Of a stretch of 64,000 nt of DNA, positions 28,029 through 64,000 are shown one piece after another (position 1 is the first letter of the stretch; every line of letters begins with the position of its first letter). Below the pieces are notes generated by a model. It had not been told where the DNA came from and did not search any database. It worked only from the letters and a program-made list of their open reading frames with translations. Made by a program: the position numbers and the translations under genes. The DNA comes from a virus: IMG/VR virus record IMGVR_UViG_3300026534_000102, positions 51,312 to 115,311 of that record; one strand, 5' to 3'.

Positions 28029-31000
28029 TTATACTCCTATATCCCATTGTGCCAATAATGGAGCTGTTCTAGTTCTTACCCTCGAAATTAAATTTTTATC
28101 CGCAGTTAAATCACTTCTTACAAAAATAGAAATTTCTCCGCCCGCGGGAACCTGTTTAAAAACAAAAGGCAGTTCAGAGGAATCTACTTTATAAAAGGTT
28201 ACATTATCCTTTGATATTTCAATTAAATCTGATTCTACTAACGGTTGTATAATATTCCCAGAAAAATCAAACAAGTCTTTATAAAAGTCTTCTTTCGCAT
28301 ATCCAAAAACTTTAACCTCACCAATAACGGCAGAAATAGATTTAGGGTTTGGCTCATTCATAAATGCATTAGAAGAACCAGTTCCTCCTATAATAAGTGT
28401 AAAAAACTTATCATCCATATATTCCCAAGTATCTTTTAAATCAAAAATAGGGACACCATTTAGATATATTCTAATAGTAGTACCTCTGGGAGAAAGTGCT
28501 GTGCCATCATTAGAAAAAGACATAGCAAAATGCCAAGGAGAATCAACTGAAATTATGTCAGAATTAGTTATAATCAAAGAGACTTTTTTAAACGAATTAG
28601 TAGATGGGTTGCCATAGTAAATCAAAAACCCACCCTCAGATAAAGCACAACCTAAAGAATCCCCCTCAGTAGATGTCATTGAAAAAATGTTTCTTGGGTG
28701 CATTTCTCCGAACGAGTCCACCCCATCTAAAGTAGTATCTGGTCTAAGCCACATACTAATGGCTCCCGAAGAGAGACTAAGATTAGAAAGCTTAATAGAT
28801 ATGTTATCATTTTCAGATAAATATAATCCTGGTACTGCATCATGGAGGTAATCTTCAAACATATTACGGGCAATACTAAAACCATCTATTTCAAATTTTA
28901 TTGGCTTTGTATTATTCCCCTTAAAATGAGTTTCTATAAAAGAGAAATCAATATATTGAACCGCTCGCGGATCTTTATCACGAGAGCCATACTCTAAATC
29001 ATAATTAACATTATCGGCGCTTTTAAATCTTAAGAACATATCATTCCAACCTGTAGAAACCTGCCCAGAAATAGTCGTAAAGTACCACTCATAGTAAATT
29101 GGACTTCTAGAACTGGTTCCATCATAACCACCAAACACAAACTTACCGTAAGTCCAATCAACAGCACTATAATCTTCTATGTACCATCGAAACTTTAATG
29201 CATCTCTCCAAGAACATTTTTCGTCTACACCAAAATCATCGCCTTCTATAAATTTAACAGTTTCTTCTAAGTTAGATTTAGGATAATCTATTACTAAAGA
29301 TCTCGTACAATAATAATACGTGGAATCATAGGAATTAGATAAATTACTATACTTAGACGACCACCAATAGTAATAATCCACTGGGTTTTCCTTATACCAT
29401 CCTATAACTTTGAGATGCTTTAAATATCTTTTACCCGATAAATGATTTGTAGCATCTAAATTCTTTGTAACCACCCATTGTTCATAATTGGGAGCTTTTC
29501 CCCACCCAGTAAATGTTATTTTTTCTGGGTCAGATAAAACTGAATCTGAAAAAGAGTAGTTATCCTCAACACTTACCCAATCCATAGAAAGGTCTTCTTT
29601 CCAAGGCCCTACAACTTCTGGAAGATCGAAAGTATAAAATTGAGATTTCATATTAATGGCTACAATTGGAGTATCATCACTATTCAAAATAGAAAAACCA
29701 TAATATTCATAAACTTCTATTTCACGTAATGTAACTCCATTAAAAACTTCTAAATCGGTCGCAGACGTGGCCAACAGAGTTTGGCCCGGCTCTATTGCAT
29801 TTACTGTAAGGCGTAGCCATCTAGCTTTAACAGGTGTAGTCACCTCATGTGTACGTTCATATTCAGTATTTCCACTAACATCAAAAAAAGTTATATATTG
29901 GCCTTCATTTTCAGCTACTTCTATAGTATAGTCTACCATCATGTGTGCTGGTAAATCTGAAGCAGGATCTGGAGATTCCTGTGCACCATGATATAAAACA
30001 ACCTTATAAATATCATACACTTTACCAAAGTCTATTATAAAATATGGAGCAGGTATATCTCCATTCACTCCCCAACACTTTAGCAAATCAAATGTATGAT
30101 CCCCATCAGTGAGAAAAGAGGTAGACATTGGTCCAAAAGTAGGAGAAGACTCTATACTCGAAGAAGCTATGCCCAAAGCTATGTTATTATTTCCCAACGA
30201 ATATAATGTAGTAGCTGGCCCTATAGCTGTCCAACTATTATTATATCCTCCAGAGGGAGCAAGTTGTGTACTAATTTCAGTAAAAACATTAAGTCGTTCA
30301 ACAAGCCTCGAAACACCATCACCATTTAATAATGTTAACATTACCCATCTAGCATTCTTAGAATCAGAATAATAAGCAGCACACTGCGTAATTTCAAATT
30401 TATTTACAAACACACCTATAGCAGGATATCCTGGATCATTACTATTTAGCGCAAAAGAACATACCATTTTAGTACAATTATTATAAACCAGTTTATAAGT
30501 AGATAGTTCAGCCCACACATCTCCAACATTTTCTCTATAATAAAAACTAAAAACATCGCCTACTCGTTTTATTCTTATATTAGCTTTTATTGGAATTGAA
30601 CTATTATTACTGTATAATTCTTTTGAAGTTGAACTATTATCATTAATAGTTAATTTATAGCCTAAAACACCATAAAAAATACCAATATTAAATTCAAAAA
30701 ACAAAGAATCATTTAAAACATCTCTTACAGTAAAAACAAAGCTCCATGGTAAAGAAGTAAAGTCCTTGATTTCATACTCAAACCATGCATCAAAATCATT
30801 ATTAAACACATATTTGAACTCAGCAGAAGCGTTATCTTGATGCTGTGTCTCTCCATTGACTTTAAATAAAAGTCTATTGTCAAAAATATATACTGAGCTA
30901 TAATCAGTAGTGTTCACAGTCCACCATTTGGGTAAAGAATAATCCTGAGCACTAAATGTAGTATCTATATCAGTTTCATTTATGTATTCAAATGCCTTAT

Positions 31001-34000
31001 TAACATCATCAGTCTCTTTACTAGAATAAATGGTATTAGTAGTCAAAGATAAATCTGTTACGCCCGAGGCGCCAAAATTTCTTATAAATTCCAAAGAATA
31101 TCTTTTTTCCAAATCGATTGCTAACATAGAGAAGTACTGCTTACTATACAAAGATCCAGCAATATAATAACTATACTGACTTGGATAAATTAAATCTACA
31201 TCACAATAATGACCATAAATAGCGTTATCATTACTTGCATAAAAAGAAATTGTGTAAAGTCTTCCGTATCGATGTTCTACTCTTGGACCAGAATAGTATA
31301 TCCGTCTATGATAGCGCCCTTTATCTTTTTGATTATTTAAATCCGTTCTAGAAATTCTCACATTAGTTATATAACCAGAAAAATACTTACCTATTTCTAT
31401 ATCATTTAATCCCGTAATATTAATTACGGATGTTGTATTAATCATCTTATTGTTGAAACCACCAATACCTACGTAAGAACCATGATCATATTCGATTCTA
31501 TATCCTTTGTTCATTATTATGTTAGTCCATCTATGCGGTTTTATATACGATTCTGTATACGAACCATTGCCTATAACAGTATCATTATAAATTAGTTCCA
31601 AAGTAAATTTATATGGATCTCTGTGTTGTCTTTTAATTATTATAGCGTATTGGTTTTCTATGTCTGAAATACCAACATCTGTTTTTCTCTGCTGTATTAA
31701 AACGGAATAATCTCTATCTCCTCTAATTAAAAACTTAGTGTATTCATCTGGAATAAATTTTCCGGCCGGCGGAGTAAAAGACGAAGACCACCTTGCAAAA
31801 CCTTTTGTAAACCTAGCTTCTTCAATAATTCCAAAACACTGATCATTAACTGTATTATTATAAAGAGCACAACCAATATTTAAATCCTGATCATTAAAAT
31901 AATTAGATCCACCAACTACACTAAACTCTTCATAGTAGCCTAGAGACCCAGAAATCACAGTTGTATTTTTTTCATCCCCATCTATAAATAGATGTAAATT
32001 ACTCCCTGCTCTACTAACAGCTAAATGATAAGTAACACTACTATCAGGATTCAGCCAAGTACAATCAATTGTATTATTTCCGCTTTCAAAAACTAATTTA
32101 TGATTTATGGCATCATAATAGAAATGTAATGTGTTTTTTCTGTAAAAGAACGTAACTTTGGAGGTAATTGAAATAAATTTGAAATAACAATCAAATGTAA
32201 AATCTTCGGTTCTTAAATCAAACAGTCTTTTATTCTTAACAATGATATAGGCATCTGAATCAACAAACTTATACCCCCACCCAACATAACCTTCTTCTGG
32301 AGGCACCATATCTACTTTGTAACTTATTACCTTGTGACCCTCACTAGATACATCATAAACCCCTTTAGGTAAACTCGTAGGGCACATCCAAAAATCTATA
32401 GTCATTAATCGATTATCTATTCTATATTCTTCCTGTTTCGGGGCAGAAAGATAAGAAGAACCATCAAAATATGCTGTCCCATTACTTTCTGGTAAAATAT
32501 TAGTATTATAAGATAGTGCAGAACTAACTTCAAAATGGTATAATTTCCCTTTAACATAATTATTAGGTGGGGTGTGGTTATAAGAACTAGCTAAACCTAA
32601 TGAAACGCTTCCCCAAATACAAGAAGAAACTAAACTTCCTTCAAAAGCCAAGGCACTACCATCGAAATCATCGGTCCAAACCTTCAAAGAGTAGTTCTCA
32701 TATCCGTCATAAACCAGTTTAAAGTAATACTTAGTATTTAAAGCACAAACCCCCAAATTATTACTTTTACTAGAGCACCCAACATCATTTGGATTTATAA
32801 TCACTATCTTAGTAGAATTTGAAGATAATCTAACACAACATCCTAACATACCAGGAGTCGAATAATAATAACCACGATATCTGTCAACATCAATAAACCC
32901 GAATTCAACCCTACCGTTTTGATAATCCGTTACCTCTAAACAAACTTTTAATTCTATTTCGGGATTATTAGTAGTATCTAATCTAGTACCGCCCCAATAA
33001 AATTCTTTTTCTTCATCTACCTTCCTTACAATTCCAGTATGTACATTATCATAATCACTTCCTTCTATAGAAAAATCCAAGTATCCTGGATACTCATAAG
33101 TCCCACTAGTGACTGTCCCACTCGAAGAAACCCAATTAAAATAAGTTAAATGTTGGAGAGAGTAATAACTCTGATTTTCATACTCGCGTGCTTCCCATTC
33201 TGAAACTGATGACCAACTACCCAAATCTAATAAATAACTACCTGAAATAGAAGTAAATTTAGATTCTATTGGTACAACACCATGCGTATTTACAGTATTT
33301 TCATAATAACTATAATCAAAAAACCTATTAGTTACTTTGTCTTCCAACAAATAAAAGGTAGTATATCTATCAACACCACAATATCGATCTATAGCAGGAT
33401 TATCAGCATCATCAATCATTTCTACCCAGTCGGGTTTAAAATCGTGATAAACAACCAATTTGTCTATAGATTTAGGACTACCTAAATCTATAGTTATATA
33501 CTGCTCATCTTTGACAGTGTAGTAACTTCCACTAGTAGAATGATCATTTAAATGGGGGGCGGTATTGATAGCAGAACTGTTAAAAACATCCATATTTTTA
33601 TTATGATAAAAAACCGCACCAGTTAGTTCTTCATCCTTGTAATAAGGTTTTATTTCTCTTATATTCCAGCTATTATATTTACATTTAAATGCCAACCTCC
33701 AATATCTGTTCCTACTAATAACAGGTATATTAATAATACTATAGGCCCCATTTGGAATATTGGAAAAATGCATGTAATCTGTTTCAATTTTTTTTCCATA
33801 ATTAAATTCAAACCAGTACTCCCCATTATCATAAGAGTAATAAGCTAATTTACCAATAATAGAATTATCCAACGTGAAACAATCACAATTTATCGCAATG
33901 TTTTTATTATCATTCCTTATAGGATATGAAGGTGACTTAGAAACAACGGGCGCAGGCCCTTTCTCAGCCCTACTCAAGGACTGGTACCCATCAAATTTAT

Positions 34001-37000
34001 CATAAAACGAAAGGGAATTAACATTTTCAACCGATTTCAAAACATCAACATATAGGTCATAAGGTTTCCCATAAATGTTTTTAAAAACAACCTCATTGAT
34101 TTGACCTTGTCTTCCAATCCCATTTGTACCAAGCACAACTAAATCCTTGCATTTTGGATTTTCTACGTATAAGTCATCTTCATTTATATTGAGCAAAATA
34201 TCTCGGAGTTTAATTGCCGTTATAGGATTAAATTCTATTGTGAAATAACGTGGGGTATCCCCAACCATAGCTTGAGCAGTTTCATTATCTAGTTCAGATA
34301 GTTCTAGAGGTATCCAATAATCTTTATATAAAGAGTAATTGATAAAAAGTCCACCAACAAAAGTGGAACCAAGATTTGGAGCAAAACCATAAAGCTCCAT
34401 CTCTAAAACTTTAGTGGAATAATGAAAATCAGTATAAATTCTAAACCCTTTGGCTTCTAAAGGCTCCCACTCATGCTGCAACAATTTCCAATCAAGGGCA
34501 ATCGCTTGATGCGCGGCCATGTTATTAGTTATATTAAACTCAGCATTATAAGTAGGATGTCCAGGTAAAGTGGAATCCCCAGGTATATACCACCCTGGAC
34601 CAGAAACATACTCTAATTGTGGTTTTCCTATAGTGGGGTTAGAAAAAAGATAATCTTTTACTGCGTCATACCTATCACTTCCTTTTTCATACCTTGTATT
34701 ATCCAAAGTTACAGCGGTGTATTCAGGAATTAAATTATAATGAGGATTATCTGCGTTCCCAGAAATATAGTAATCATCTACATAATAAGATAAAGCAAAG
34801 TTTTTAAAGTTGTTTTCTTCTTTAAAATAAATTTTTGATTTAAATATTTTCTTATTACGATTTAAAGGGAATCGGGTGTAAAAAGCCACAGGGTCACTTT
34901 CAAAATCTATAACTCTTTCATTAGTAAACCAGGGGTATTCGAAATAATGTCTCCCAATCCATTCATGATCACCATTTACCCAAAAATAATAGGGATTGTT
35001 TGGAATTACTCCAGTATCAGCATAAGATGCCCAGGAATCAGCCGCCTTACCTCCCTGGACCTTGTAAATCCCATCATTTAGTCTATTAACTCCATAAGCT
35101 ATATTCGGGACAGTAAAAAAATGCCAAAGACCCTGAAGAATATCATAATAAGCTGTTGTATGATTTAAACCAAATACATCAACATTCCAATTTATATCAA
35201 CACAGCGCATTAAATTATATTCCAAAGAAAGGGGTTTGGAAGACCCCGTAACTATTAAATCACTTATATTTATCCTGTGATTTAAATCTACATCAAGTCG
35301 AAGGCGTGTTTGTTTCTCTGAACTTCGAGCATATAATAATAAACCATCTACACCATCACCATGAATTGATCCAGGATAAATTCTATCCCCTACAAATACT
35401 TCTTCTGGGAATTCATAATATAGAGCGTTTGTATGAACGGCGTCACCCTGCGGACCTTTATATAGCTTAATATTATAGATTCCTAGCAAGTCACCTTTAT
35501 TTACGAAAATATCGCAATCTACATCTATCGACATTTGATATCTGTCATATAGTGTATGTATTGGGTCGGTCTTATCTTCAATAGGAATTGTTTCCACACA
35601 AACCAAACTTCCATCAATCTGTGGTCTAAAAATTAAAAACTTACTTCCTTTTGCCGTTATTCTACCCGCATCGCTTTCTTCACTAATAAGCCACCCGCCA
35701 TACAGGTCAGTTCTCACGCTTTGATAACCTATATCTGGAGTACCTAAAGCATGAATCTCTTTAATTCTACCAGTAGCATTAAATGGATGACAATAATCAA
35801 TAATAACTTTACCAAACCCATCAAGCATATTATAATTAGGATAAGATTGTTGTCTGTAGTCAGGGTCCATGGTGAAAAAAAGTTCGTCTTGACTACCCCC
35901 TGTCCCACAGGTATCCCAGTCTTTTCTACCAGCCTCAACATTATAAAGGTGTGGATCAAAATTTATAGATGTTGAATCATTAGCATCAAAAAGTCTTTGA
36001 ATACCATAAGTTCCTAATCTATAAGAAGATAAAAATTCAGATAAATCAGCGGGGTCTGTTCCAGAAGTAGTTGTAAAGAGAGCATTTCCTGAAGCATCAT
36101 AAAACCCCAATTCTACTGCCGCTGGAGAAAAATCTACAAGTACAGAACTCGCAGCTCTATTCGTTCCAGATATAATTTCAAATCTATTATCTTCAGTAAA
36201 ATTAACTTCGGCAGCCTCGTAACCTCCTAACGAAATCAAAGAAAGACTACGCTCAACTAATCGTGCAACCTCATGACCTGTGTAGTTTATAAACTCGCCT
36301 AATAAAACATGTTCAAACCCATAACCATCAATGTTTACCAATAAATCACTATCATTAGTACCTGACACAGTAAACATAGTTTTATTATTATAACCAGAAA
36401 TACATTTTCCTCTTAACCCAACCCCCTGACAGGGGTGTGAATAGTTCCCAGTTCTAAAATATTCACAATTAGGTTTATCACAATTAAATTTGTCAATGGA
36501 TTTTACCTGTATAGACCTAATAAAAAACTCATCACCATCTCGACCATCTTGATAAATAGGATAAACTCTTAAATCATAAACATCACCTTGCCAATATTGT
36601 GCCTCTGCTACTGAAATAGTATAAGTGTGCCATTTACTATCAGGGTAAATTTCAAATAAAGTCGATTTCTTTTCATCCCAATGTGGATCTGCTAACGTTC
36701 TCCACATCAACTTACCTTTAGAAGGTAAATTTTGGCCGGCGGCGCGGTCAATAACATTAAGTTCCATAGATATTGTAACTATAAAATAATCTTCTGCTGA
36801 AAAAGGCTGAAAAGGATGGTCTCTTCCTATTACTGCAAAATCCCCATACAAGGTAGCAAAAATAAAATCGTTCCAGCAACCATAAGTATGAATACCATCA
36901 TAGTACAACCATCCATCTACATCACCATTCCTACTAAAATCAGTAGTAAAAGCTACATTAGAATCATGCACGCATAAATAAGATTGACGCACAACAACAT

Positions 37001-37025
37001 CGCTATTAGTATATGCATTACTCAA
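28029..37025 (-). CDS. Giant modular adhesin (2998 aa)
   Basis: The longest gene in the window. Several lectin-type modules are recognisable: an F5/8C-like stretch near residues 1170-1215 (YITIDLGSPKSIDKLVVYHD), two LamG/concanavalin-like domains near 1520-1760 (LMTIDFWMCPTSLP and FTFDCYFKFISITSK, the latter ending IIEEARFTKGFARWSS), an F5/8C domain near 2335-2445 (FGKVYDIYKVVLYHG, ARWLRLTVNA), and a C-terminal LamG domain near 2740-2890 (GAISMWLRPD, STNSFKKVSLI). A Cys-rich spot near residues 185-210 (CDKPNCEYF, CQGVGLRGKC) may bind metal. No protease or glycosidase motif is seen. The start overlaps the upstream zinc protein by 8 nt. It is probably a long fibre or central host-binding scaffold. 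The nested + and - frames inside it are shadows. Confidence 0.8.
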   Translation of the reverse strand: MSNAYTNSDVVVRQSYLCVHDSNVAFTTDFSRNGDVDGWLYYDGIHTYGCWNDFIFATLYGDFAVIGRDHPFQPFSAEDYFIVTISMELNVIDRAAGQNLPSKGKLMWRTLADPHWDEKKSTLFEIYPDSKWHTYTISVAEAQYWQGDVYDLRVYPIYQDGRDGDEFFIRSIQVKSIDKFNCDKPNCEYFRTGNYSHPCQGVGLRGKCISGYNNKTMFTVSGTNDSDLLVNIDGYGFEHVLLGEFINYTGHEVARLVERSLSLISLGGYEAAEVNFTEDNRFEIISGTNRAASSVLVDFSPAAVELGFYDASGNALFTTTSGTDPADLSEFLSSYRLGTYGIQRLFDANDSTSINFDPHLYNVEAGRKDWDTCGTGGSQDELFFTMDPDYRQQSYPNYNMLDGFGKVIIDYCHPFNATGRIKEIHALGTPDIGYQSVRTDLYGGWLISEESDAGRITAKGSKFLIFRPQIDGSLVCVETIPIEDKTDPIHTLYDRYQMSIDVDCDIFVNKGDLLGIYNIKLYKGPQGDAVHTNALYYEFPEEVFVGDRIYPGSIHGDGVDGLLLYARSSEKQTRLRLDVDLNHRINISDLIVTGSSKPLSLEYNLMRCVDINWNVDVFGLNHTTAYYDILQGLWHFFTVPNIAYGVNRLNDGIYKVQGGKAADSWASYADTGVIPNNPYYFWVNGDHEWIGRHYFEYPWFTNERVIDFESDPVAFYTRFPLNRNKKIFKSKIYFKEENNFKNFALSYYVDDYYISGNADNPHYNLIPEYTAVTLDNTRYEKGSDRYDAVKDYLFSNPTIGKPQLEYVSGPGWYIPGDSTLPGHPTYNAEFNITNNMAAHQAIALDWKLLQHEWEPLEAKGFRIYTDFHYSTKVLEMELYGFAPNLGSTFVGGLFINYSLYKDYWIPLELSELDNETAQAMVGDTPRYFTIEFNPITAIKLRDILLNINEDDLYVENPKCKDLVVLGTNGIGRQGQINEVVFKNIYGKPYDLYVDVLKSVENVNSLSFYDKFDGYQSLSRAEKGPAPVVSKSPSYPIRNDNKNIAINCDCFTLDNSIIGKLAYYSYDNGEYWFEFNYGKKIETDYMHFSNIPNGAYSIINIPVISRNRYWRLAFKCKYNSWNIREIKPYYKDEELTGAVFYHNKNMDVFNSSAINTAPHLNDHSTSGSYYTVKDEQYITIDLGSPKSIDKLVVYHDFKPDWVEMIDDADNPAIDRYCGVDRYTTFYLLEDKVTNRFFDYSYYENTVNTHGVVPIESKFTSISGSYLLDLGSWSSVSEWEAREYENQSYYSLQHLTYFNWVSSSGTVTSGTYEYPGYLDFSIEGSDYDNVHTGIVRKVDEEKEFYWGGTRLDTTNNPEIELKVCLEVTDYQNGRVEFGFIDVDRYRGYYYSTPGMLGCCVRLSSNSTKIVIINPNDVGCSSKSNNLGVCALNTKYYFKLVYDGYENYSLKVWTDDFDGSALAFEGSLVSSCIWGSVSLGLASSYNHTPPNNYVKGKLYHFEVSSALSYNTNILPESNGTAYFDGSSYLSAPKQEEYRIDNRLMTIDFWMCPTSLPKGVYDVSSEGHKVISYKVDMVPPEEGYVGWGYKFVDSDAYIIVKNKRLFDLRTEDFTFDCYFKFISITSKVTFFYRKNTLHFYYDAINHKLVFESGNNTIDCTWLNPDSSVTYHLAVSRAGSNLHLFIDGDEKNTTVISGSLGYYEEFSVVGGSNYFNDQDLNIGCALYNNTVNDQCFGIIEEARFTKGFARWSSSFTPPAGKFIPDEYTKFLIRGDRDYSVLIQQRKTDVGISDIENQYAIIIKRQHRDPYKFTLELIYNDTVIGNGSYTESYIKPHRWTNIIMNKGYRIEYDHGSYVGIGGFNNKMINTTSVINITGLNDIEIGKYFSGYITNVRISRTDLNNQKDKGRYHRRIYYSGPRVEHRYGRLYTISFYASNDNAIYGHYCDVDLIYPSQYSYYIAGSLYSKQYFSMLAIDLEKRYSLEFIRNFGASGVTDLSLTTNTIYSSKETDDVNKAFEYINETDIDTTFSAQDYSLPKWWTVNTTDYSSVYIFDNRLLFKVNGETQHQDNASAEFKYVFNNDFDAWFEYEIKDFTSLPWSFVFTVRDVLNDSLFFEFNIGIFYGVLGYKLTINDNSSTSKELYSNNSSIPIKANIRIKRVGDVFSFYYRENVGDVWAELSTYKLVYNNCTKMVCSFALNSNDPGYPAIGVFVNKFEITQCAAYYSDSKNARWVMLTLLNGDGVSRLVERLNVFTEISTQLAPSGGYNNSWTAIGPATTLYSLGNNNIALGIASSSIESSPTFGPMSTSFLTDGDHTFDLLKCWGVNGDIPAPYFIIDFGKVYDIYKVVLYHGAQESPDPASDLPAHMMVDYTIEVAENEGQYITFFDVSGNTEYERTHEVTTPVKARWLRLTVNAIEPGQTLLATSATDLEVFNGVTLREIEVYEYYGFSILNSDDTPIVAINMKSQFYTFDLPEVVGPWKEDLSMDWVSVEDNYSFSDSVLSDPEKITFTGWGKAPNYEQWVVTKNLDATNHLSGKRYLKHLKVIGWYKENPVDYYYWWSSKYSNLSNSYDSTYYYCTRSLVIDYPKSNLEETVKFIEGDDFGVDEKCSWRDALKFRWYIEDYSAVDWTYGKFVFGGYDGTSSRSPIYYEWYFTTISGQVSTGWNDMFLRFKSADNVNYDLEYGSRDKDPRAVQYIDFSFIETHFKGNNTKPIKFEIDGFSIARNMFEDYLHDAVPGLYLSENDNISIKLSNLSLSSGAISMWLRPDTTLDGVDSFGEMHPRNIFSMTSTEGDSLGCALSEGGFLIYYGNPSTNSFKKVSLIITNSDIISVDSPWHFAMSFSNDGTALSPRGTTIRIYLNGVPIFDLKDTWEYMDDKFFTLIIGGTGSSNAFMNEPNPKSISAVIGEVKVFGYAKEDFYKDLFDFSGNIIQPLVESDLIEISKDNVTFYKVDSSELPFVFKQVPAGGEISIFVRSDLTADKNLISRVRTRTAPLLAQWDIGV

Positions 37026-49120: not shown

Positions 49121-51937
49121 TTATTTTAACCTGTACAATACTGGTAGTATAGATGTACGTGGATCTTTGGTGACGTCTTTTTCATAGATCTGCAATCTTA
49201 AAGAGTTTTTATTAACTCCACCGCCCTCCCCTAAAACTAACACTTCGACGTCATTAAATCTAGGAACTCCCCAAGAACATTTTTTGGGATTTTCGACAAC
49301 AAAATCTACTGAAAATCCATCATCAATATAAAAAGGATAACTCGTATGTAATACATTTGCCTGCTCTGCATTATCCGCGCAGCTAACCTTTATAATCACT
49401 TCTTCACCATATAAAAAGGGTGTGGGTGGAGAATATTTTACCTTATAAAAATTTCTATTTACTTTAGTAATCTGCTGGGGGCTTACTAAAATTGAATTAA
49501 CAGTTATATCTAAGGTATTAATATTAATTCCCGTTCCAGTATCTTTCAAATCAAAACTAATAAAAGTGTCAGGAGAAACATTTGTCTCACCAGCAGCTGG
49601 CAATAGATTTTCTATAAATGGCCCTTTAAAATCAGGAATTATCTCAAACCAATAATTAACATAAATTCTATTGGGATAAGGAGCAGTATCATAAAGCTCA
49701 ATATAAACATAAACAAAAGCTCTATTATGAAAATCCACTGGTGGGTCATATAAAATTTCGACCCCTAAAAGACCACTTCCAGCATCATAGTATGTTTTGG
49801 AAATAACATTACTTACATCTTGATATCCCGTATCTCCAATATATGATAGTTCCCTCACTTTCATAACCACAGTATCAGCATTTAAATTATGTGCAAACGG
49901 ACGTAATCTAATCCATATATTAGTATCAACTGGATTTTTCTCGCTCCAAAACTTAGGAATAGCATCTTCCACAAAAACAAACTGATCCAACCTAACATTT
50001 GTAAACAACTCATCATAAGGATGACCATCCACCCAATTTGTATGTAAGCTCAACTTTAATTGACTAAATGTCATAGAATTGCCTTCATGTTGTTGCTCTA
50101 TCCTATTAAAAGGCGGTAACATTTTATGGGTTTTACCATGTTCTACATAATCAGGATCATCTTTAGACATCTCCTGATATACTAAAAAATAATTTAATTC
50201 CCAAATACTAGTAGATGACACTAAATCCTCTACAAGAGTTATTCTATCTGAAAGACTGGAGTTAAAATCAAGAATCCCATGATTCCAAACAGAAAACTTA
50301 CCATCCGGCGGGCCTAAACTATCATTAGGCCCATAGTTTATAAGCTCTGGTAGCCAGTTTGATATAGTTTCGGGAGAAGAAGAATAAACCCAATTTCCTC
50401 CAGGCGTTGTAAAATAATTATGACATAGAATGCTAATTTCTGGTGGCACTAAATGAGTACTATTAGGGTTTTCAGGAATTTTATACATATCTGAAATTTG
50501 TTGCAAAGCAGTCCTATTAATACTTTTAAATTCTTTATCTTGAAACAACCGTACAAACAACGAGTTACTAATTTCTGGAAAGTTTGAATAACTTCTTACA
50601 TAACCTCTATCCCAAACAAACTCACTTCCAGTAAAACTAGAACCACCAGTAGCTTTATAACTAAGTTGAGTCATTCCTGTATAAAGAGCACCAGCCCTAT
50701 AAATCACCGAAGCCTGCCCATTTATATCTGTAGTAACTTCTCCACTCAAAGGATCTAACAAAGCTCCCTGATCTCCAGTAACTATAGCTACACTAACAGG
50801 GACATCTCTTAAAGATACGTTATATTGGTCTCTAACTGTAAGTCTCAAAGTAGTAGTATCATAGGATCCTATTGTAAAATTATCATCTGAGTAATTAGTA
50901 ACATTATGGGTATAAGGGGCTAATGTATCTTGTTTAAAATTATAATAGGGTGTCCAGTTTACTTGTTGCAAGTTTCCGTCCGCTGTTCTAAAAGTAGCAA
51001 TTTGAGATAATTTAAAAATATCTGTACCATCAAAACAAAAGTCATAAATATCATATGGTGTACTTTTATCAGATTGATAATTATCAACTATTTGGGAACG
51101 AACCACTTTATAACCCTGCTGAGGATCAATATACAAAATGTTTAAATTACACAATGAAGCAAGTGTATTATATTCTTCACACCACCTGCTAACATTAATT
51201 CTTTTATAAACACCATCATTTGTTACTTCAATTATAGAGCCCGTGTCAGAATCAAGTTTAAATAACGTACCCTTATCTGTACTAGCACCTATACCACCAT
51301 TACTAATCACATAAAAACATTTATAAAAACTTATAGAGTCTGTCTTTATATAATCGTAACTAATATTACTCGTTAAAGTCAGTTTATTATCGAAAGAGTC
51401 AATTGCTTGAATATATACTACCTCTATTTCTCCTAAATTATCAGGGTCAAAACTAGGCCCTAAAAATAATTTTTGATTTACAGTTAACCCTGTAATATCG
51501 TCTATAAAAATGTGATTACTTCCAGCTTCTTGGTCTTTCTTAAACCGCCGGCGAATAATTTCCGGCGCCATACTATTCACATCAAAATGGTACAAACCAG
51601 TATCTTGTAATAAAAACGTCTTTTTTAAGTTTAATTGCTGATGATCTAAATCCACTTCCCACTTTTTTATTAATGCTTTCGCATTTGTAACCCATTCTAG
51701 TGTAACAAACTCAAGACCACTTATAAACTTATATGATCTAATCGGTCCTAAATATTCCAATGCTTTTAATTCCCCTACAATATTAAAAGAAAAAGTAAAA
51801 GAAGAAACCAAGGCGCCGCCTTTATTCTTAACATCCAATACCGTAGTAGGGTTTTCATTATTTACATTACAAAAACTACCATCAATTGGACTCAAACAAA
51901 AATTAGGAGTTCTTATTTGTAAATTTTCAAATGGCAC
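49121..51937 (-). CDS. Tail adhesin with Big_1 and Ig-like domains (paralog of next gene)
   Basis: A 938-aa protein. The N-terminal 330 residues are paralogous to the 407-aa protein at 51952-53175: both open MPxENxxxR, and both contain a SFYK...NGG/NYYG...G(T/A)LxKxxxxTGxI segment. A Big_1 (invasin-type) Ig domain follows at about 355-430 (LRLTVRDQYNVSLRDVPVSV, then GQASVIYRAG). Residues about 770-870 hold a Big_5/SbsA-like Ig domain (PFIENLLPAAGETNVSPDTF). These domains are common in bacterial and phage adhesins. The C-terminus ends in a short conserved segment (SCSWGVPRFNDVEVLV without the first residues). Likely a fibre or baseplate-attached spike. Confidence 0.7.
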   Translation of the reverse strand: MPFENLQIRTPNFCLSPIDGSFCNVNNENPTTVLDVKNKGGALVSSFTFSFNIVGELKALEYLGPIRSYKFISGLEFVTLEWVTNAKALIKKWEVDLDHQQLNLKKTFLLQDTGLYHFDVNSMAPEIIRRRFKKDQEAGSNHIFIDDITGLTVNQKLFLGPSFDPDNLGEIEVVYIQAIDSFDNKLTLTSNISYDYIKTDSISFYKCFYVISNGGIGASTDKGTLFKLDSDTGSIIEVTNDGVYKRINVSRWCEEYNTLASLCNLNILYIDPQQGYKVVRSQIVDNYQSDKSTPYDIYDFCFDGTDIFKLSQIATFRTADGNLQQVNWTPYYNFKQDTLAPYTHNVTNYSDDNFTIGSYDTTTLRLTVRDQYNVSLRDVPVSVAIVTGDQGALLDPLSGEVTTDINGQASVIYRAGALYTGMTQLSYKATGGSSFTGSEFVWDRGYVRSYSNFPEISNSLFVRLFQDKEFKSINRTALQQISDMYKIPENPNSTHLVPPEISILCHNYFTTPGGNWVYSSSPETISNWLPELINYGPNDSLGPPDGKFSVWNHGILDFNSSLSDRITLVEDLVSSTSIWELNYFLVYQEMSKDDPDYVEHGKTHKMLPPFNRIEQQHEGNSMTFSQLKLSLHTNWVDGHPYDELFTNVRLDQFVFVEDAIPKFWSEKNPVDTNIWIRLRPFAHNLNADTVVMKVRELSYIGDTGYQDVSNVISKTYYDAGSGLLGVEILYDPPVDFHNRAFVYVYIELYDTAPYPNRIYVNYWFEIIPDFKGPFIENLLPAAGETNVSPDTFISFDLKDTGTGININTLDITVNSILVSPQQITKVNRNFYKVKYSPPTPFLYGEEVIIKVSCADNAEQANVLHTSYPFYIDDGFSVDFVVENPKKCSWGVPRFNDVEVLVLGEGGGVNKNSLRLQIYEKDVTKDPRTSILPVLYRLK

Positions 51938-51951
51938 TTATATCCTCCCTA

Positions 51952-53175
51952 TTATTGTTGAGCTGTGGCTGTTACTCTAACTTCTCTAGCACTAATCCCA
52001 GCTCTATATACAGTATGCGCTATGCCTAAAGCATCCGTATTAACTGGTGAAGATAAAATTGCACCATCTGGGTCATCTGCAGTAAAATATACTAATTTTC
52101 CTACAATTGGCAAATTAAATTGATCTTTAACTATAGCGGTAATATCTGCTGTATTAGTTCCATTTGCGGGTAAAATTGCCGGCTCAGATCTAAGACTTAT
52201 ACTAGTAATAAACTTATTTAATGTTGATAGTTGATAATTATAAGGACCATATGCAAAATCGGAAGTCTGCCCATAATAAGTAGCCTTAAGTTGAAGTCTA
52301 TAAACATTGGTGCCAAACATACTAATATCAAAAATTGGAATTACCGTGGCCAGATCACTTTCCACATTGTCCATAGTCATAGCCCCATGACTATGATTTA
52401 AATCTTCTGGATCCAAAAACACAGTATTTGTTCCTTTAACATAAGCTATAGAATGTGCCACACTGCCAAAAACACTACTTGGAGTAGTGTAAAATGTAGC
52501 CGCACCTATATCTTTATAAGAAGAATCTTGTGTCTTACTAATTATTGCTCCTGTATAGGCATTTATTTTATACAAAGCACCTGTTGATGGATCATTTCCA
52601 TAGTAATTATTAAATAACCAGATATTTTTATAAAAACTAACAGGATCGCCACTTTCAAAATCATAAAGAGTTGTACCATTAATATTTACAAAATCAGCTC
52701 CAGCAGAATTTACAGTGGCTTCTTGAAGCTGGCCAAATCTATTTGGACCCAAAACAACCGTGTAACCACTCTGCATCTTGGAACCATCGCTTATACTTAA
52801 ACTAGCACTACCTGCAGACTCATTAGCAGTAAAAGTCAAATGATAATGTTCAATCGTCATCGCCTCTGAAGAAAATGTATCTGTACCACTATTAATAAAA
52901 GAGAAAGTATTTCTTAATTTACAAACATAGTTATTAATATACCACCGCCTAATCACAACCCCATTGCTTAATTGCTCTAAAGACCAAAAATTATACCCAT
53001 CATGTTCTAAACTTAAAACCTGTGATGTAATGGCGGTATCCAAAGGATAGGTAAACGCATAAGTACCATCATCTGTTTTCATTACTAATGCATCTAAATT
53101 ATCATCTATATTATAGAAATAACCATCTGCCATCACTAAATTTTGTTTCCTAAATTTTATATTTTCATATGGCAT
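51952..53175 (-). CDS. Tail adhesin ending in a Big_1 domain
   Basis: A 407-aa paralog of the 938-aa protein downstream. Residues 1-320 align in order with its first 350, and residues 325-407 form a Big_1 Ig-like domain (PANGTNTADITAIVKDQFNL, then GIAHTVYRAG), after which the protein stops. It therefore looks like the shorter copy of a duplicated gene. Its start overlaps the end of the PP-domain-like gene by 11 nt, so the adhesin is translationally coupled to the decarboxylase-like pair. Probably structural. Confidence 0.72.
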   Translation of the reverse strand: MPYENIKFRKQNLVMADGYFYNIDDNLDALVMKTDDGTYAFTYPLDTAITSQVLSLEHDGYNFWSLEQLSNGVVIRRWYINNYVCKLRNTFSFINSGTDTFSSEAMTIEHYHLTFTANESAGSASLSISDGSKMQSGYTVVLGPNRFGQLQEATVNSAGADFVNINGTTLYDFESGDPVSFYKNIWLFNNYYGNDPSTGALYKINAYTGAIISKTQDSSYKDIGAATFYTTPSSVFGSVAHSIAYVKGTNTVFLDPEDLNHSHGAMTMDNVESDLATVIPIFDISMFGTNVYRLQLKATYYGQTSDFAYGPYNYQLSTLNKFITSISLRSEPAILPANGTNTADITAIVKDQFNLPIVGKLVYFTADDPDGAILSSPVNTDALGIAHTVYRAGISAREVRVTATAQQ

Positions 53176-53815
53176 TTATTTCTTTCTCCTTTACAGTATC
53201 CAAATTAAAAGTATCCAAAGGGGGTGGATTAAACATAGCTGTTTTGTCGTCCAACAAAAATTTCTTTAATCTATTAATGAAAAAAGAATTAGGCTTGTCT
53301 ATTTTCTTATAAGTACTTTTTCTAGGCAATACGTTTATAATAATAGACGCAGGACCTACCATAGTACTAATAATATTAGACATTTCTTCTAATTTCTCAG
53401 AAGATTTAAAATAGCTATCAAAAATAAACGATGTAAAACCCATTCTAAATAAGAGACCTTGTGGATGGGAAGAGCTATAAAAAACATTAGGATGCCCTCC
53501 TGCACTAATATAACTCCCACTTACTAATAAAACATAATATATATTTTTACACTGACTTACAGCCATCTGAAAAGCAGTACTAATAAATCTAAGAAAAACA
53601 TTATCCGTAGTTACAACAAAAACACGTTTAATTGAAGTCATTGCAATTCCCAATGCCAAAGCAGCCAAATCACAAGAAGGCGCCTTATAATAAAAGTTTC
53701 CACTCCGATCATTGACATAAGCCTCTTCACAAAGCCTGTCACCGAAAAAAATCACTACATCGTCTGGCGACAATTTTTTTGTAAATTCTTTTACTGCCTT
53801 ATATCTAGTTACCAT
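53165..53815 (-). CDS. ThDP-enzyme PP-domain homolog (ComE-like), cofactor site degenerate
   Basis: A 216-aa protein that aligns along its length with sulfopyruvate decarboxylase beta subunits (ComE) and the C-terminal half of phosphonopyruvate decarboxylase. Shared positions include DDVVIFFGD, GNFYYKAPSCDLAALALGIA, KRVFVVTTDN, KNIYYVLLVSGSY, SAGGHPN and the closing GPASIIINVLP. In working enzymes the thiamine-diphosphate/Mg motif is GDG about 26 residues before an Asn; here it is TDN (Asp71 kept, both Gly lost) and the Asn position is Ser99. Catalysis is therefore doubtful. The C-terminal 45 residues are extra. It follows the PYR-like gene by 1 nt and overlaps a tail adhesin gene. It is either a repurposed structural or ligand-binding fold or a divergent enzyme. 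Confidence 0.7.
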   Translation of the reverse strand: MVTRYKAVKEFTKKLSPDDVVIFFGDRLCEEAYVNDRSGNFYYKAPSCDLAALALGIAMTSIKRVFVVTTDNVFLRFISTAFQMAVSQCKNIYYVLLVSGSYISAGGHPNVFYSSSHPQGLLFRMGFTSFIFDSYFKSSEKLEEMSNIISTMVGPASIIINVLPRKSTYKKIDKPNSFFINRLKKFLLDDKTAMFNPPPLDTFNLDTVKEKEINAI

Positions 53816-53816
53816 A

Positions 53817-54254
53817 CTATATATCCTTTTTAATATTTACTATGCCTGGAATCTTACGTCTAACAATTTTTTTATCAAACTTGATTAATTCACTTTTAAG
53901 TTCAAATAAATTAATATCTATTTTTAAAAGCCCGCGAGAATTAATTTCGTTTTTGTCTGAAGAATACACAAACACCATAAATGGACATGAACACTCTTTT
54001 ATAAATTTAATGGTGTCTACAGGAATAACATTAAAAAAAGACGAGTCCAAGAAAACTCCAGATTTAATATTATTCAAAGCAGCACCTAAAGCTAAATTAA
54101 TTGCAATACTTCCATCTATAGCCGGTATATAGTGCATTTTTTTAGGATTCATTTTCCTATACACAGAATCAAACCCAGCACACGCCACCCCGGAAAAAAA
54201 CCTATAATCTAAAACATCACATACAACATTCCAAAACTCTTTTACTTTAATCAT
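53817..54254 (-). CDS. ThDP-enzyme PYR-domain homolog (ComD-like)
   Basis: A 145-aa protein resembling the alpha subunit (PYR domain) of sulfopyruvate decarboxylase and the N-terminal half of phosphonopyruvate decarboxylase. Matching positions are YRFFSGVACAGF, HYIPAIDGSIAINLALGAAL, NNIKSGVFLDSSFFNVI and CPFMVFVYSSDKNE. The Glu that activates the thiamine pyrimidine ring (AxNE in active enzymes) is absent; the nearest acid is Asp47. The two halves lie in the same order as comD-comE, 1 nt apart, preserving a heterodimer gene layout. SD AAGGA lies just before the ATG. Family membership is inferred from pattern by eye and needs a profile search. Confidence 0.65.
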   Translation of the reverse strand: MIKVKEFWNVVCDVLDYRFFSGVACAGFDSVYRKMNPKKMHYIPAIDGSIAINLALGAALNNIKSGVFLDSSFFNVIPVDTIKFIKECSCPFMVFVYSSDKNEINSRGLLKIDINLFELKSELIKFDKKIVRRKIPGIVNIKKDI

Positions 54255-54271: not shown

Positions 54272-54772
54272 TTATTCATATGTATCGTAAATAATAAGCG
54301 GTGGTCTCCATTTTATATGATATTCATACGGATTACCTGTAATTTCTAAATCATTAGTTATATCAAACCCATTTGCCGTTACTTTTAAAGTAGTTAAATC
54401 GATACCAGTAGACGGTATATCATCCTTGATCACAAACTCAACCGGATCATTTATCTTTGCAATGTATTCTGTAGGATACACACTATCTACATAAGGAGGA
54501 GAAATATCCTCCTCATACGGTTCCCAATCAATTTGTTTGGATATTTGAGCAGCTAATTTCTCTATTTCTTTATCAACTGAATCTAAAGTAATTAAATTAG
54601 CAAAAACATTCTTTATTTTATTACCATTTTTATCTAACGCATCAGTCCCTACTGATAATAACCAAATCGGCTCTCCATCATGCCTATTATAATCCACATA
54701 TTGAGTTAATGTAACTCCACACTTGATTACTTTATGGGGATTTAATGAATTTTTTATTAAAAAATTTGCCAT
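54272..54772 (-). CDS. Small tail protein with truncated Ig-like C-terminus
   Basis: A 166-aa protein. Residues about 5-90 contain a helical segment (VDKEIEKLAAQISKQID). Residues 95-166 match the Big_5/SbsA-like Ig domain of the 938-aa protein (PPYVDSVYPTEYIAKINDP, ending YHIKWRPPLII), but stop at the point where that domain needs two more strands. It therefore looks 3'-truncated relative to its relative. The ThDP-like pair begins 17 nt after the stop, so that pair may have been inserted near this break. Confidence 0.6.
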   Translation of the reverse strand: MANFLIKNSLNPHKVIKCGVTLTQYVDYNRHDGEPIWLLSVGTDALDKNGNKIKNVFANLITLDSVDKEIEKLAAQISKQIDWEPYEEDISPPYVDSVYPTEYIAKINDPVEFVIKDDIPSTGIDLTTLKVTANGFDITNDLEITGNPYEYHIKWRPPLIIYDTYE

Positions 54773-61633: not shown

Positions 61634-64000
61634 TTATATTAATGCATGAGTTTGATTTTTCAACAAGTTAGTAGTTCTTTCATATTTTTCATCTATATAA
61701 CTCACCCGACCTTTTAGTTGTTCTAATTCAGATCTGGAAGCATCGGCTGAAGTAGCCACATTATTTAAATCAATAGTTATTTTACCTACCATCTGATCTA
61801 CATTCTCTTTAGCTATTTGTTGAGCAGTATTGTAGTCTACACTTTTTTTACTCAAATCTTGTAAATCAGTATTCAGCATCACTATTTTATCTTTAGTAGT
61901 TTTATGATCATCCGCCAAATTAACTAAACTTTCTGCTATCACCCCTACTTGCTCGACAATATTATTGAACGTATCTGCACCAACGGAGGGATTATTATTC
62001 TCTACCCTCACAGTGTCTTTATCTAATTTTGCTGTCACAGTAATGTTATTTAAACTATCTGTATTTAAATCTACTTTCTTATCTGCTAACTCAAGTTTAG
62101 GAAAACTAACACTTTCAGCGGCGGTCTTCAAATGCTCCGCTATAGTGCTTCCAGCTAAGTCTGCATCTACTTTCACCGTCAAGTCTTCTGGTACATTAAT
62201 TTTTACTTCGGATCCTTCTATAGCAGATTTAGTTTTGTCTGCCAGCGTAGATGCTGCTTCTTTCACATCTAATTTAATTTCTTTATCTTCTTCTTTTAAA
62301 CTAACAGTTAAATCTGTATCCTTTATTTTATCAGAAATGTCTTTACCCACATCAGACATGGCTTTTTTCAGTTCCTTAGATAATTCTGTTAAATCCAATT
62401 TAGAACTGTTAAGGGAGGCTTTGTTAGTAGAGTTATTCAAAATAGAAGTTAAGCTAGTGCTATCCTCAGAAGAAATCTTTTTAGGAATAACTACTTCACC
62501 GCCTTCCATGTAGTACGGCCCTGATTTTGGAATCAGCCCTCCACCATGCTTAGTATAAGCCGTTGTCTCTTTTGCTTTAAAAAACTTAGCAAATATTGAT
62601 TTAAACTGGGCTGTCATGTTAGATTTCAAAACCTGCATCATATCAGAAGCATTTACATTCTCACCTAACCCTAAAGAACTAACATTAGTAGTTGCAGTGG
62701 GATTAAACAAACCCGTTATAAGTTTATTTATCTGGGTCTTACTTAGTGCTGGAGACCCAATCACTTTTTCTGTCTGTTGAGCTTTTTTAAAACTCTTAGA
62801 AAACAATAAATTTTGAGCTCTACCTGCCAAAGGACCAAAAGCACCATTATTTTTATCCCCATATTTAGATAAAATAGACTTTTTTCTAAAGTCCATGCCT
62901 ATGTAATATTGAGGCATTGCTGCTAATTTTGATCTACGTTGAGCATTTTCCAACTCTATATAAGCATCCCGTATCTTTTTATTTGGGCTCAACCAAGCCC
63001 TATCACGACTATTCCTGACTTTCTGAAGTAGGTTGGTTAATTTTGTAAAACGATCTATCTTTCTCTTAGCAGCTTCAAATTGCTGTTCTCCATTTTTCTG
63101 AACAGAGTAATACTGTTGTAAATAACCTCTTTTAATTATGTTATTAAAATTCTTAGAAATAGTTAAATCATTTGCACCTTGATTATCTACGTCCATATTA
63201 GAAATACCTCTACCAGAAACACCTTTTTTGGTAGTATATTTCCAATTGGGCACATTTTTAGAAGTTACTAATGCCTTTTTAAGCTCTGTATTAGCTATAT
63301 CAGACACAGGCATTCTATGGTATGTGGTGCCTTTCCCCGCGACCGGAGAAAAAGTAGATTTATAAGTCCCTTTTCTAATAGCTTCATCATACGCCAACCG
63401 ATCTCTTATTAATTTAGATTCCTTGGTTAAAGGTTTTTTTACAGCCAAACCAGACATATAACTTTTGCCTGGTTTAAAATCACCCATATTTAAATTCATT
63501 GGACCAGGACCAACAGTTTTCTTATAATTCTCTAAGTGTACACTAGCTATCTTGTCTATAAAATTACCTATCTTACTCATTCCCAACGATACACTTCTTT
63601 TATCATAAACAGGAATCCCAAAAACGGCCCCTAATTGATTAGTCCCAACAACACCAAAAGGATTTCCAATACTATCGTTTGTAGTAGTACCGGTAATAGA
63701 AATCTTATTTATGGGGGAAGTTGTTACCTTTTTTCTATTTAATCTAATCTGATCTCTTAAAATTTTACGTGCTTTCTCATACTCATCTCTATCTGTAAAT
63801 TCCTTATATTCATTTCCAGGCCCAGCTAAATAATACCTTACTTTTTTATCTTCCGTTATTCCACCACTAGCATATTTATTAGGATCAGCTTGATTCAAAA
63901 TCCTATATTGAGCGTCTCTATTATAAGAAATTTCGTGCCACTTCTTAATATTAGGTGGATGCTTGCTAAAATCATTCTCGCCTATGAAAAACTTTTTCAT
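61634..64000 (-). CDS. Tail tape-measure protein (C-terminal part)
   Basis: 788 codons open to the window edge. The Met at 63998-64000 coincides with the edge and may be internal. The first half is Lys/Asn-rich helix and loop. Near residues 488-512 is the motif GGLIPKSGPYYMEGGEVVIP, very typical of tape-measure C-terminal regions. From about residue 515 a long low-complexity helical/beta alternation rich in Lys and Asp leads into coiled coil (LTDLSKKSVD-type, KGRVSYIDEKYERTTNLLKN). Tape measures set tail length and are placed before hub genes, as here. Membrane-spanning segments expected in such proteins would be upstream and are not seen in this part. The opposing frame at 61965-62513 is a shadow. 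Confidence 0.82.
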   Translation of the reverse strand: MKKFFIGENDFSKHPPNIKKWHEISYNRDAQYRILNQADPNKYASGGITEDKKVRYYLAGPGNEYKEFTDRDEYEKARKILRDQIRLNRKKVTTSPINKISITGTTTNDSIGNPFGVVGTNQLGAVFGIPVYDKRSVSLGMSKIGNFIDKIASVHLENYKKTVGPGPMNLNMGDFKPGKSYMSGLAVKKPLTKESKLIRDRLAYDEAIRKGTYKSTFSPVAGKGTTYHRMPVSDIANTELKKALVTSKNVPNWKYTTKKGVSGRGISNMDVDNQGANDLTISKNFNNIIKRGYLQQYYSVQKNGEQQFEAAKRKIDRFTKLTNLLQKVRNSRDRAWLSPNKKIRDAYIELENAQRRSKLAAMPQYYIGMDFRKKSILSKYGDKNNGAFGPLAGRAQNLLFSKSFKKAQQTEKVIGSPALSKTQINKLITGLFNPTATTNVSSLGLGENVNASDMMQVLKSNMTAQFKSIFAKFFKAKETTAYTKHGGGLIPKSGPYYMEGGEVVIPKKISSEDSTSLTSILNNSTNKASLNSSKLDLTELSKELKKAMSDVGKDISDKIKDTDLTVSLKEEDKEIKLDVKEAASTLADKTKSAIEGSEVKINVPEDLTVKVDADLAGSTIAEHLKTAAESVSFPKLELADKKVDLNTDSLNNITVTAKLDKDTVRVENNNPSVGADTFNNIVEQVGVIAESLVNLADDHKTTKDKIVMLNTDLQDLSKKSVDYNTAQQIAKENVDQMVGKITIDLNNVATSADASRSELEQLKGRVSYIDEKYERTTNLLKNQTHALI

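What the first reader, a model, noticed from the sequence alone, without database searches (positions are those of the whole stretch)
53165..54254. Split ThDP-decarboxylase pair with eroded active site inside a tail-adhesin operon
Two adjacent genes match, in order, the PYR (ComD-like) and PP (ComE-like) subunits of sulfopyruvate/phosphonopyruvate decarboxylases. They are embedded between tail adhesin genes and coupled to one of them by an 11-nt overlap. The cofactor residues are altered: the GDG is TDN, the downstream Asn is Ser99, and the PYR Glu is missing. Conservation of fold-defining positions alongside loss of catalytic ones suggests a non-catalytic, structural or ligand-binding use of a metabolic fold in a phage tail. 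I know of no described system like this. Sequence pattern: seen; family features: established; repurposing: inference.
Basis: partly seen in the sequence, partly recalled or inferred. Interest (0 to 1): 0.85.

Follow-up and report, generated by a model that had tools for sequence, protein, structure and literature searches.

The report
Dead-enzyme pair in phage tail genes
A group of uncultured bacterial viruses carries, among the genes for its very long tail, a matched pair of proteins descended from a vitamin-B1-dependent enzyme that has lost parts of its active site in every copy found, which suggests that a metabolic enzyme was turned into a tail part or tail helper.

Summary
The two genes at 53165-54254(-) are PYR and PP subunits of the split ThDP decarboxylase family (ComDE/RhiEF). 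The window's PP protein matches TIGR03846 (E 1.5e-8). Foldseek's best solved structure for both predicted models is RhiEF (E 2.8e-9 and 2.3e-7). Profile comparison confirms the PYR gene, which has no hit alone.

The pair is not a one-off. Ten more IMG/VR records carry it, and it was not found in GenBank phages. All copies sit in a tail module (capsid, giant tape measure, hub-like genes, pair, adhesins) with PYR-PP coupling kept. In ten of eleven the pair lies directly before the Big_1 adhesin gene. Five related records lack it there, so it is an accessory cassette.

The erosion is real but uneven. GDG/Asn/Glu are all present only in L006, and GEG/Asn/Glu in L004 and L028. But all eleven lost the QNSGxGN loop and the RG segment of the PYR subunit, and none has an intact GSMG. 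New residues are invariant instead (PYR C12, R18, H41, P44; PP S87, C89). That points to a selected non-catalytic function. The GDG centre stays acidic 11/11, so metal or phosphate binding is not excluded. Presence in the virion is inferred, not shown.

The parts
53817..54254 (-). PYR (ComD/RhiE-like) subunit, 145 aa; Glu position is G48; QNSGxGN loop replaced by DSSFFNV (70-76); RG..E..Q..MG segment deleted after residue about 101
   Evidence: (9iz3_A E=2.3e-7, TMq 0.84)
53165..53815 (-). PP (ComE/RhiF-like) subunit, 216 aa; GDG is T70-D71-N72; Asn is S99; GSMG is replaced by APSC (45-48); phage-specific C-terminal tail 192-216
   Evidence: (9iz3_B E=2.8e-9)
53165..53175 (-). 11-nt overlap of the PP gene with the start of the adhesin gene; the PYR-PP gap is 1 nt
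51952..53175 (-). adhesin-type protein, 407 aa, C-terminal Big_1 domain; next gene after the pair in 10 of 11 copies
   Evidence: (Big_1 E=7.1e-11)
54272..54772 (-). small protein gpX (166 aa), no family hit; flanks the cassette upstream and lies directly before the adhesin gene in the five records without the pair
   Evidence: an Ig-like C-terminal half is my reading of the sequence
49121..51937 (-). second adhesin-type protein, 938 aa, weak Big_1 and a paralogous N-terminus
   Evidence: Big_1 E=0.0011
61634..64000 (-). C-terminal 788 aa of a giant tape-measure-like ORF, cut by the record end
   Evidence: motif PYYMEGGEVVIPKK; full-length counterparts of 8639 and 8048 aa in related records

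Best explanation
The pair is a phage-domesticated split ThDP-fold heteromer of ComDE/RhiEF ancestry that no longer works as a decarboxylase. Steps shown: homology and fold; tight coupling of the two genes, so probably equal expression; a family of 11 found only as a cassette in the distal tail module; loss in all copies of the PYR QNSGxGN loop and RG segment; new phage-specific invariant residues. Steps inferred: the two subunits still assemble as a PYR-PP heteromer (likely, because both are kept together and coupled). This heteromer acts with the adhesins, either as an accessory part of the tail tip or as an assembly factor for it. The old cofactor cleft is now an interface or binds another, perhaps metal- or phosphate-containing, ligand. 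My step estimates: ThDP-enzyme ancestry 0.98; not a canonical ThDP decarboxylase 0.93 for the window's copy and 0.85 for the whole family; heteromer kept 0.85; acts in or on the tail 0.6; physically in the virion 0.45.
For: NCBIfam, hhalign and Foldseek agree on the family for both subunits. Eleven of 16 related records carry the PYR gene. All 11 have it inside the tail gene order with 4-nt PYR-PP overlaps in nine and gaps of 1-2 nt in two. In L005's record the order is terminase-like match at 9 kb, major head protein at 17 kb (phrog_2522 E=6.3e-10), tape measure 32-57 kb, pair at 64 kb. The phage pairs are monophyletic against cellular enzymes with support 100. Of 13 columns invariant in seven cellular PYR sequences, those in the QNSGxGN loop and RG segment are kept in 0-3 of 11 phages, while G57 is 11/11. 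Phage-invariant residues C12, R18, F20, G22, M35, H41, P44 and F84 (PYR) and D19, G25, S87 and C89 (PP) are not invariant in the enzymes. Third codon positions differ about twice as often as second positions, and no frame is broken, so the proteins are under selection. No PEP mutase was found in any of 14 records.
Against: No proteomics or structure shows the pair in a virion. Five related records lack the pair, so it is dispensable for that tail plan, and L036 has it one gene earlier. L006 keeps GDG, Asn and Glu, and L004/L028 keep GEG, Asn and Glu, so loss of the cofactor site is not complete everywhere. The AF2 models come from seven sequences, and the PP cofactor loop is low in confidence (residues 103-110).
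Confidence: 0.55

Rival explanations
1. Non-virion accessory gene (moron): the pair rides in the late tail operon but acts in the infected cell, for example by capturing or disturbing host ThDP enzyme subunits or a metabolite, or by countering a host defence.
For: Accessory presence (11 with, 5 without); a slot next to homing endonuclease genes in relatives; L036 shows a different position in the same module.
Against: Conserved tight coupling to the adhesin and PYR genes; co-inheritance with the same tail module over deep divergence; no counterpart outside this tail setting found in viral contigs.
Confidence: 0.2
2. A working but remodelled ThDP or metal/phosphate-dependent enzyme: the pair still binds a diphosphate cofactor and acts on a surface-linked 2-oxoacid, phosphonate or sulfonate, with the window's copy a diverged or decayed member.
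For: L006 has GDG, Asn and Glu; L004 and L028 have GEG, Asn and Glu; the GDG centre is acidic in 11/11 copies and the Asn position holds N, S, T, C or E in all. The PYR Glu is kept in 8/11. Glyoxylate carboligase shows that Glu is not essential (own knowledge).
Against: QNSGxGN loop and RG segment lost in all 11; GSMG intact in none, nearest GSVG in L004; all below curated family cut-offs; no partner metabolic gene found.
Confidence: 0.15
3. A decaying, functionless passenger (recent metabolic gene capture in the course of loss).
For: Loss of many enzyme-invariant positions; faster divergence (28-41% identity) than the adhesin (55-60%).
Against: Eleven intact reading frames for both genes at about 30-50% identity, coupling kept, codon-position pattern of purifying selection, 9-11 invariant residues per subunit.
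Confidence: 0.04

Closest known systems
RhiEF, split phosphonopyruvate decarboxylase of Bacillus subtilis ATCC 6633 (PDB 9iz3/9iz4; review PMC12141560)
   Same: Two separate genes in PYR-PP order, same folds, best structural hit for both subunits
   Different: RhiEF is a ThDP-binding enzyme of rhizocticin biosynthesis; the phage pair lacks the QNSGxGN loop, RG segment and mostly GDG/Asn, and lies among tail genes
ComDE, sulfopyruvate decarboxylase (TIGR03845/TIGR03846)
   Same: Best sequence models for the subunits
   Different: Phage proteins score far below curated cut-offs (window PP 34.8 against 221.5 bits) and lack partner coenzyme M or sulfonate genes as far as tested
Fused phosphonopyruvate decarboxylase AepY/Ppd (TIGR03297)
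   Same: PYR and PP domains both align
   Different: One chain, in aepX-aepY-aminotransferase clusters; catalytic motifs intact
T4 baseplate reports of phage dihydrofolate reductase and thymidylate synthase as structural parts (own knowledge, not found in the library searched)
   Same: Idea of a metabolic enzyme in a phage tail
   Different: Those enzymes are catalytically active and lie outside the tail operon; the present pair is eroded and encoded in it
P23-45/P74-26 long-tailed Thermus phages (PMC10770324, PMC10034513)
   Same: Giant tape measure protein, no sheath found here
   Different: Their tape measure has 5,002 residues; here 8,048 and 8,639; no pair is known to me there

Membership tests
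Split ThDP-dependent 2-oxoacid decarboxylase (ComDE/RhiEF) | PYR and PP domain folds on two adjacent genes | tested here: met
Split ThDP-dependent 2-oxoacid decarboxylase (ComDE/RhiEF) | GDG...N metal and diphosphate motif in PP | tested here: not met
   Window TDN...S99; intact only in L006, conservative (GEG, N) in L004 and L028
Split ThDP-dependent 2-oxoacid decarboxylase (ComDE/RhiEF) | Catalytic Glu of PYR that activates the aminopyrimidine | tested here: not met
   G48 in the window; I in L002, A in L003; E in the other 8
Split ThDP-dependent 2-oxoacid decarboxylase (ComDE/RhiEF) | Q[NS]SGxGN loop and RG segment of PYR (invariant in 7 cellular enzymes used) | tested here: not met
   Absent in all 11 phage proteins
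Split ThDP-dependent 2-oxoacid decarboxylase (ComDE/RhiEF) | Score above NCBIfam curated cut-off | tested here: not met
   PP 34.8 bits against 221.5; no record over the cut-off
Split ThDP-dependent 2-oxoacid decarboxylase (ComDE/RhiEF) | Neighbouring phosphonate or sulfonate pathway genes | tested here: not met
   PEP mutase PF13714 in 0 of 14 records; records are partial; sulfonate genes not searched
Split ThDP-dependent 2-oxoacid decarboxylase (ComDE/RhiEF) | ThDP binding and decarboxylase activity | not testable with these tools
   needs protein
Phage tail structural or tail-assembly protein | Encoded in the tail module, conserved with it | tested here: met
Phage tail structural or tail-assembly protein | Present in virions or needed for tail assembly | not testable with these tools
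   uncultured phages

The most novel reading that the evidence does not exclude
A heteromeric metabolic enzyme was captured once by a lineage of very long-tailed phages and turned into a tail-tip component or adhesin assembly factor, with the cofactor cleft rebuilt for a new ligand or protein interface; the lineage preserves intermediate states (L006, then L004/L028, then the window's copy).
Probability: 0.4. Interest if true: 0.82.

Novelty: new variant of a known kind. Interest (0 to 1): 0.68.

Why it matters
If true, it is a documented series from near-intact to clearly non-catalytic copies of a ThDP enzyme within one phage gene family, tied to host-recognition genes. It would show how phages recruit metabolic folds as tail parts, and it gives residue-level predictions that can be tested with recombinant pairs. 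It also warns against reading such genes as auxiliary metabolic genes on family name alone.

Tried and rejected
Single-protein scans of viral contigs with the window's PP and PYR, the 938-aa adhesin and L006's PP and second adhesin gave no new relatives. The PP alignment was too variable to scan with. The one 'phage' GenBank hit, MT836947, is a bacterial aepX-aepY-aminotransferase fragment and was not counted. Literature searches for a phage or virion ThDP pseudoenzyme gave nothing on point; the library holds only open-licence papers. Pfam and PHROGs name neither gene. Chance similarity was rejected by agreement of sequence, profile and fold. A metabolic-cassette reading was rejected for lack of pathway partners. 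dN/dS was not fitted, because third positions are near saturation; only codon-position counts were made. Order among the deepest phage branches is not resolved (supports 33-83), so 'L006 is basal' is only suggested. The set of cellular enzymes compared is small (7).

Full report
What is there. On the minus strand the window holds two short genes between a 166-aa protein (54272-54772) and a 407-aa protein with a C-terminal Big_1 domain (51952-53175, Big_1 E=7.1e-11). The first (53817-54254) gives 145 aa, the second (53165-53815) 216 aa; they are 1 nt apart, and the second overlaps the adhesin gene by 11 nt. The record is an IMG/VR virus sequence of 115,311 bases.

Family and fold. The 216-aa protein matches sulfopyruvate decarboxylase subunit beta, TIGR03846, over residues 4-184 at E=1.5e-8, and phosphonopyruvate decarboxylase TIGR03297 at 1.7e-5. 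The 145-aa protein has no hit alone, but six of seven relatives hit TIGR03297 and five TIGR03845. Profile against profile with five cellular split pairs gives E=8.6e-24 for PP and 2.5e-8 for PYR. AlphaFold2 models (pLDDT 78 and 88) have, as best solved structures, the two chains of RhiEF (9iz3/9iz4), PP to chain B (2.8e-9) and PYR to chain A (2.3e-7). RhiEF is a ThDP-dependent heteromer homologous to ComDE (PMC12141560).

Other phages. A scan with the adhesin found relatives that carry the same gene order, an alignment of the adhesin extended the set, and a PYR alignment added two more. In all, 11 records including the window have the pair; five more distant ones (L013-L017) have the 166-aa gene and the adhesin gene 12-15 nt apart with nothing between. 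A PYR profile search of 16 records found it exactly once in each of the 11 and in none of the five; TIGR03846 gave the same split on 14 of them. The adhesin tree separates the pair-bearing from the pair-less set with support 100 (L028 and L036 were found later and are not in that tree). In L036 the pair lies one gene earlier, before the 166-aa gene. The pair is therefore an accessory cassette of this tail module, gained or lost as a unit. No GenBank phage relative was found.

The setting is a tail module. In L005's record a terminase-like match lies at 9 kb, a major head protein at 17 kb (phrog_2522, E=6.3e-10), then an ORF of 8,048 aa at 32-57 kb, then small hub-like genes, the pair at 64 kb and the adhesins. 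L002's record has an ORF of 8,639 aa in the same place. Their C-terminal motifs (GEVVIPQ; in the window GGEVVIPKK) and place make them tape measure candidates; PHROGs support is weak, so the name is inference. No sheath gene was found in eight records.

The active site. Cellular pairs used for comparison are from UBP3 (L010), Priestia (L019), Haematobacter (L021), Shinella (L022) and Sphingobium (L023), plus two fused AepY. Positions, order window, L002, L003, L004, L005, L006, L007, L011, L012, L028, L036. PYR Glu: G, I, A, E, E, E, E, E, E, E, E. GDG: TDN, DDA, EDS, GEG, EDI, GDG, EDQ, NDG, SDC, GEG, EDQ. Asn: S, S, S, N, C, N, S, T, E, N, T. GSMG: intact in none, GSVG in L004. QNSGxGN loop of PYR: absent in all 11. 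The RG...E...Q...MG segment of PYR is deleted or replaced in all. That these motifs bind or shape the cofactor and substrate site follows from established knowledge of ThDP enzymes; I could not measure contacts in 9iz4.

What this means. Two features argue that the change is selected and not mere decay. First, reading frames and coupling are intact in all 11 at 23-51% identity, and third codon positions differ about twice as often as second positions. One copy (L007's PYR) ends a few residues early relative to the profile at a TAG. Second, residues that vary in the enzymes are invariant in the phages: C12, R18, F20, G22, M35, H41, P44 and F84 in PYR, D19, G25, S87 and C89 in PP. R18-G22 and H41-P44 lie in the two PYR strands that lead to the cofactor side of the domain, so the old cleft looks rebuilt (inference from alignment). 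Phage PP also has a C-terminal extension with a loose T-S/A-L/M-F/Y-x-P-P motif in most copies and no counterpart in the enzymes; it is a candidate docking peptide (inference).

Limits. Loss is graded. L006 has the complete GDG/Asn/Glu set and is the first branch of the phage clade with the shortest branch, though support is modest (64-83). An acidic residue persists at the GDG centre in 11/11, so binding of a metal or phosphate group is not excluded. Glu loss alone would not prove inactivity. Family membership as an enzyme fails on tested features; descent from that family is firm.

Mechanism. I take as most likely a non-catalytic PYR-PP heteromer acting on or in the distal tail with the adhesins, accessory to the core tail. 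Ranked below it are a non-virion moron (0.2), a remodelled enzyme (0.15) and a decaying passenger (0.04). No tool here can show presence in the virion or a ligand.

Novelty. The fold and the split arrangement are known. A conserved phage family of eroded ComDE/RhiEF pairs in a tail module is, as far as the searched literature and databases show, undescribed. I rate it a new variant of a known kind.

Noticed in passing
window 61634-64000(-); L039:4130 to L002:1470 (G001:C1:4130-30049); L040 15475 to L005 (G004:C1:32474-56620): Giant tape-measure-like ORFs of 8,639 and 8,048 aa in related records; the window holds only the C-terminal 788 aa. If tape measures, they exceed the 5,002 residues of Thermus phage P23-45 (PMC10770324) and predict tails well over 1 micrometre by the usual 1.5 A per residue rule.
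   Followed up: partly
L014:4096-5031, L015:8537-9463, L016:8139-9074; L003:60-830; L004:14386-15093; L005:13913-14269; L002:14771-15394: Homing-endonuclease-like ORFs sit between the tail genes of relatives, three of them next to the slot that holds the pair in other phages.
   Followed up: no
L010:12-5915: In a UBP3 MAG an intact split ComDE-type pair lies with a threonine/cysteate-synthase-like gene, a NeuB-like gene and an aldehyde dehydrogenase, beside polysaccharide genes: perhaps a sulfonate or phosphonate surface decoration pathway.
   Followed up: no
window 17301-19484, 28029-37025 (-): Very large adhesin-type genes with LamG-like, F5/8 type C and DUF2341 domains (up to 2,998 aa).
   Followed up: partly
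L026:2819-10949 (G000:C1 about 42.8-51 kb): A run of sugar-nucleotide, aminotransferase, acyl/hexapeptide-transferase and glycosyltransferase-like genes in the phage record, read from the sequence only.
   Followed up: no
L018 (MT836947.1): GenBank record labelled 'Bacteriophage sp.' is a bacterial fragment with a phosphonate (PEP mutase-like, aepY, aminotransferase) cluster.
   Followed up: yes
L036:10004-11583: In the most divergent copy the pair lies before, not after, the 166-aa gene; either the cassette or that gene moved.
   Followed up: no
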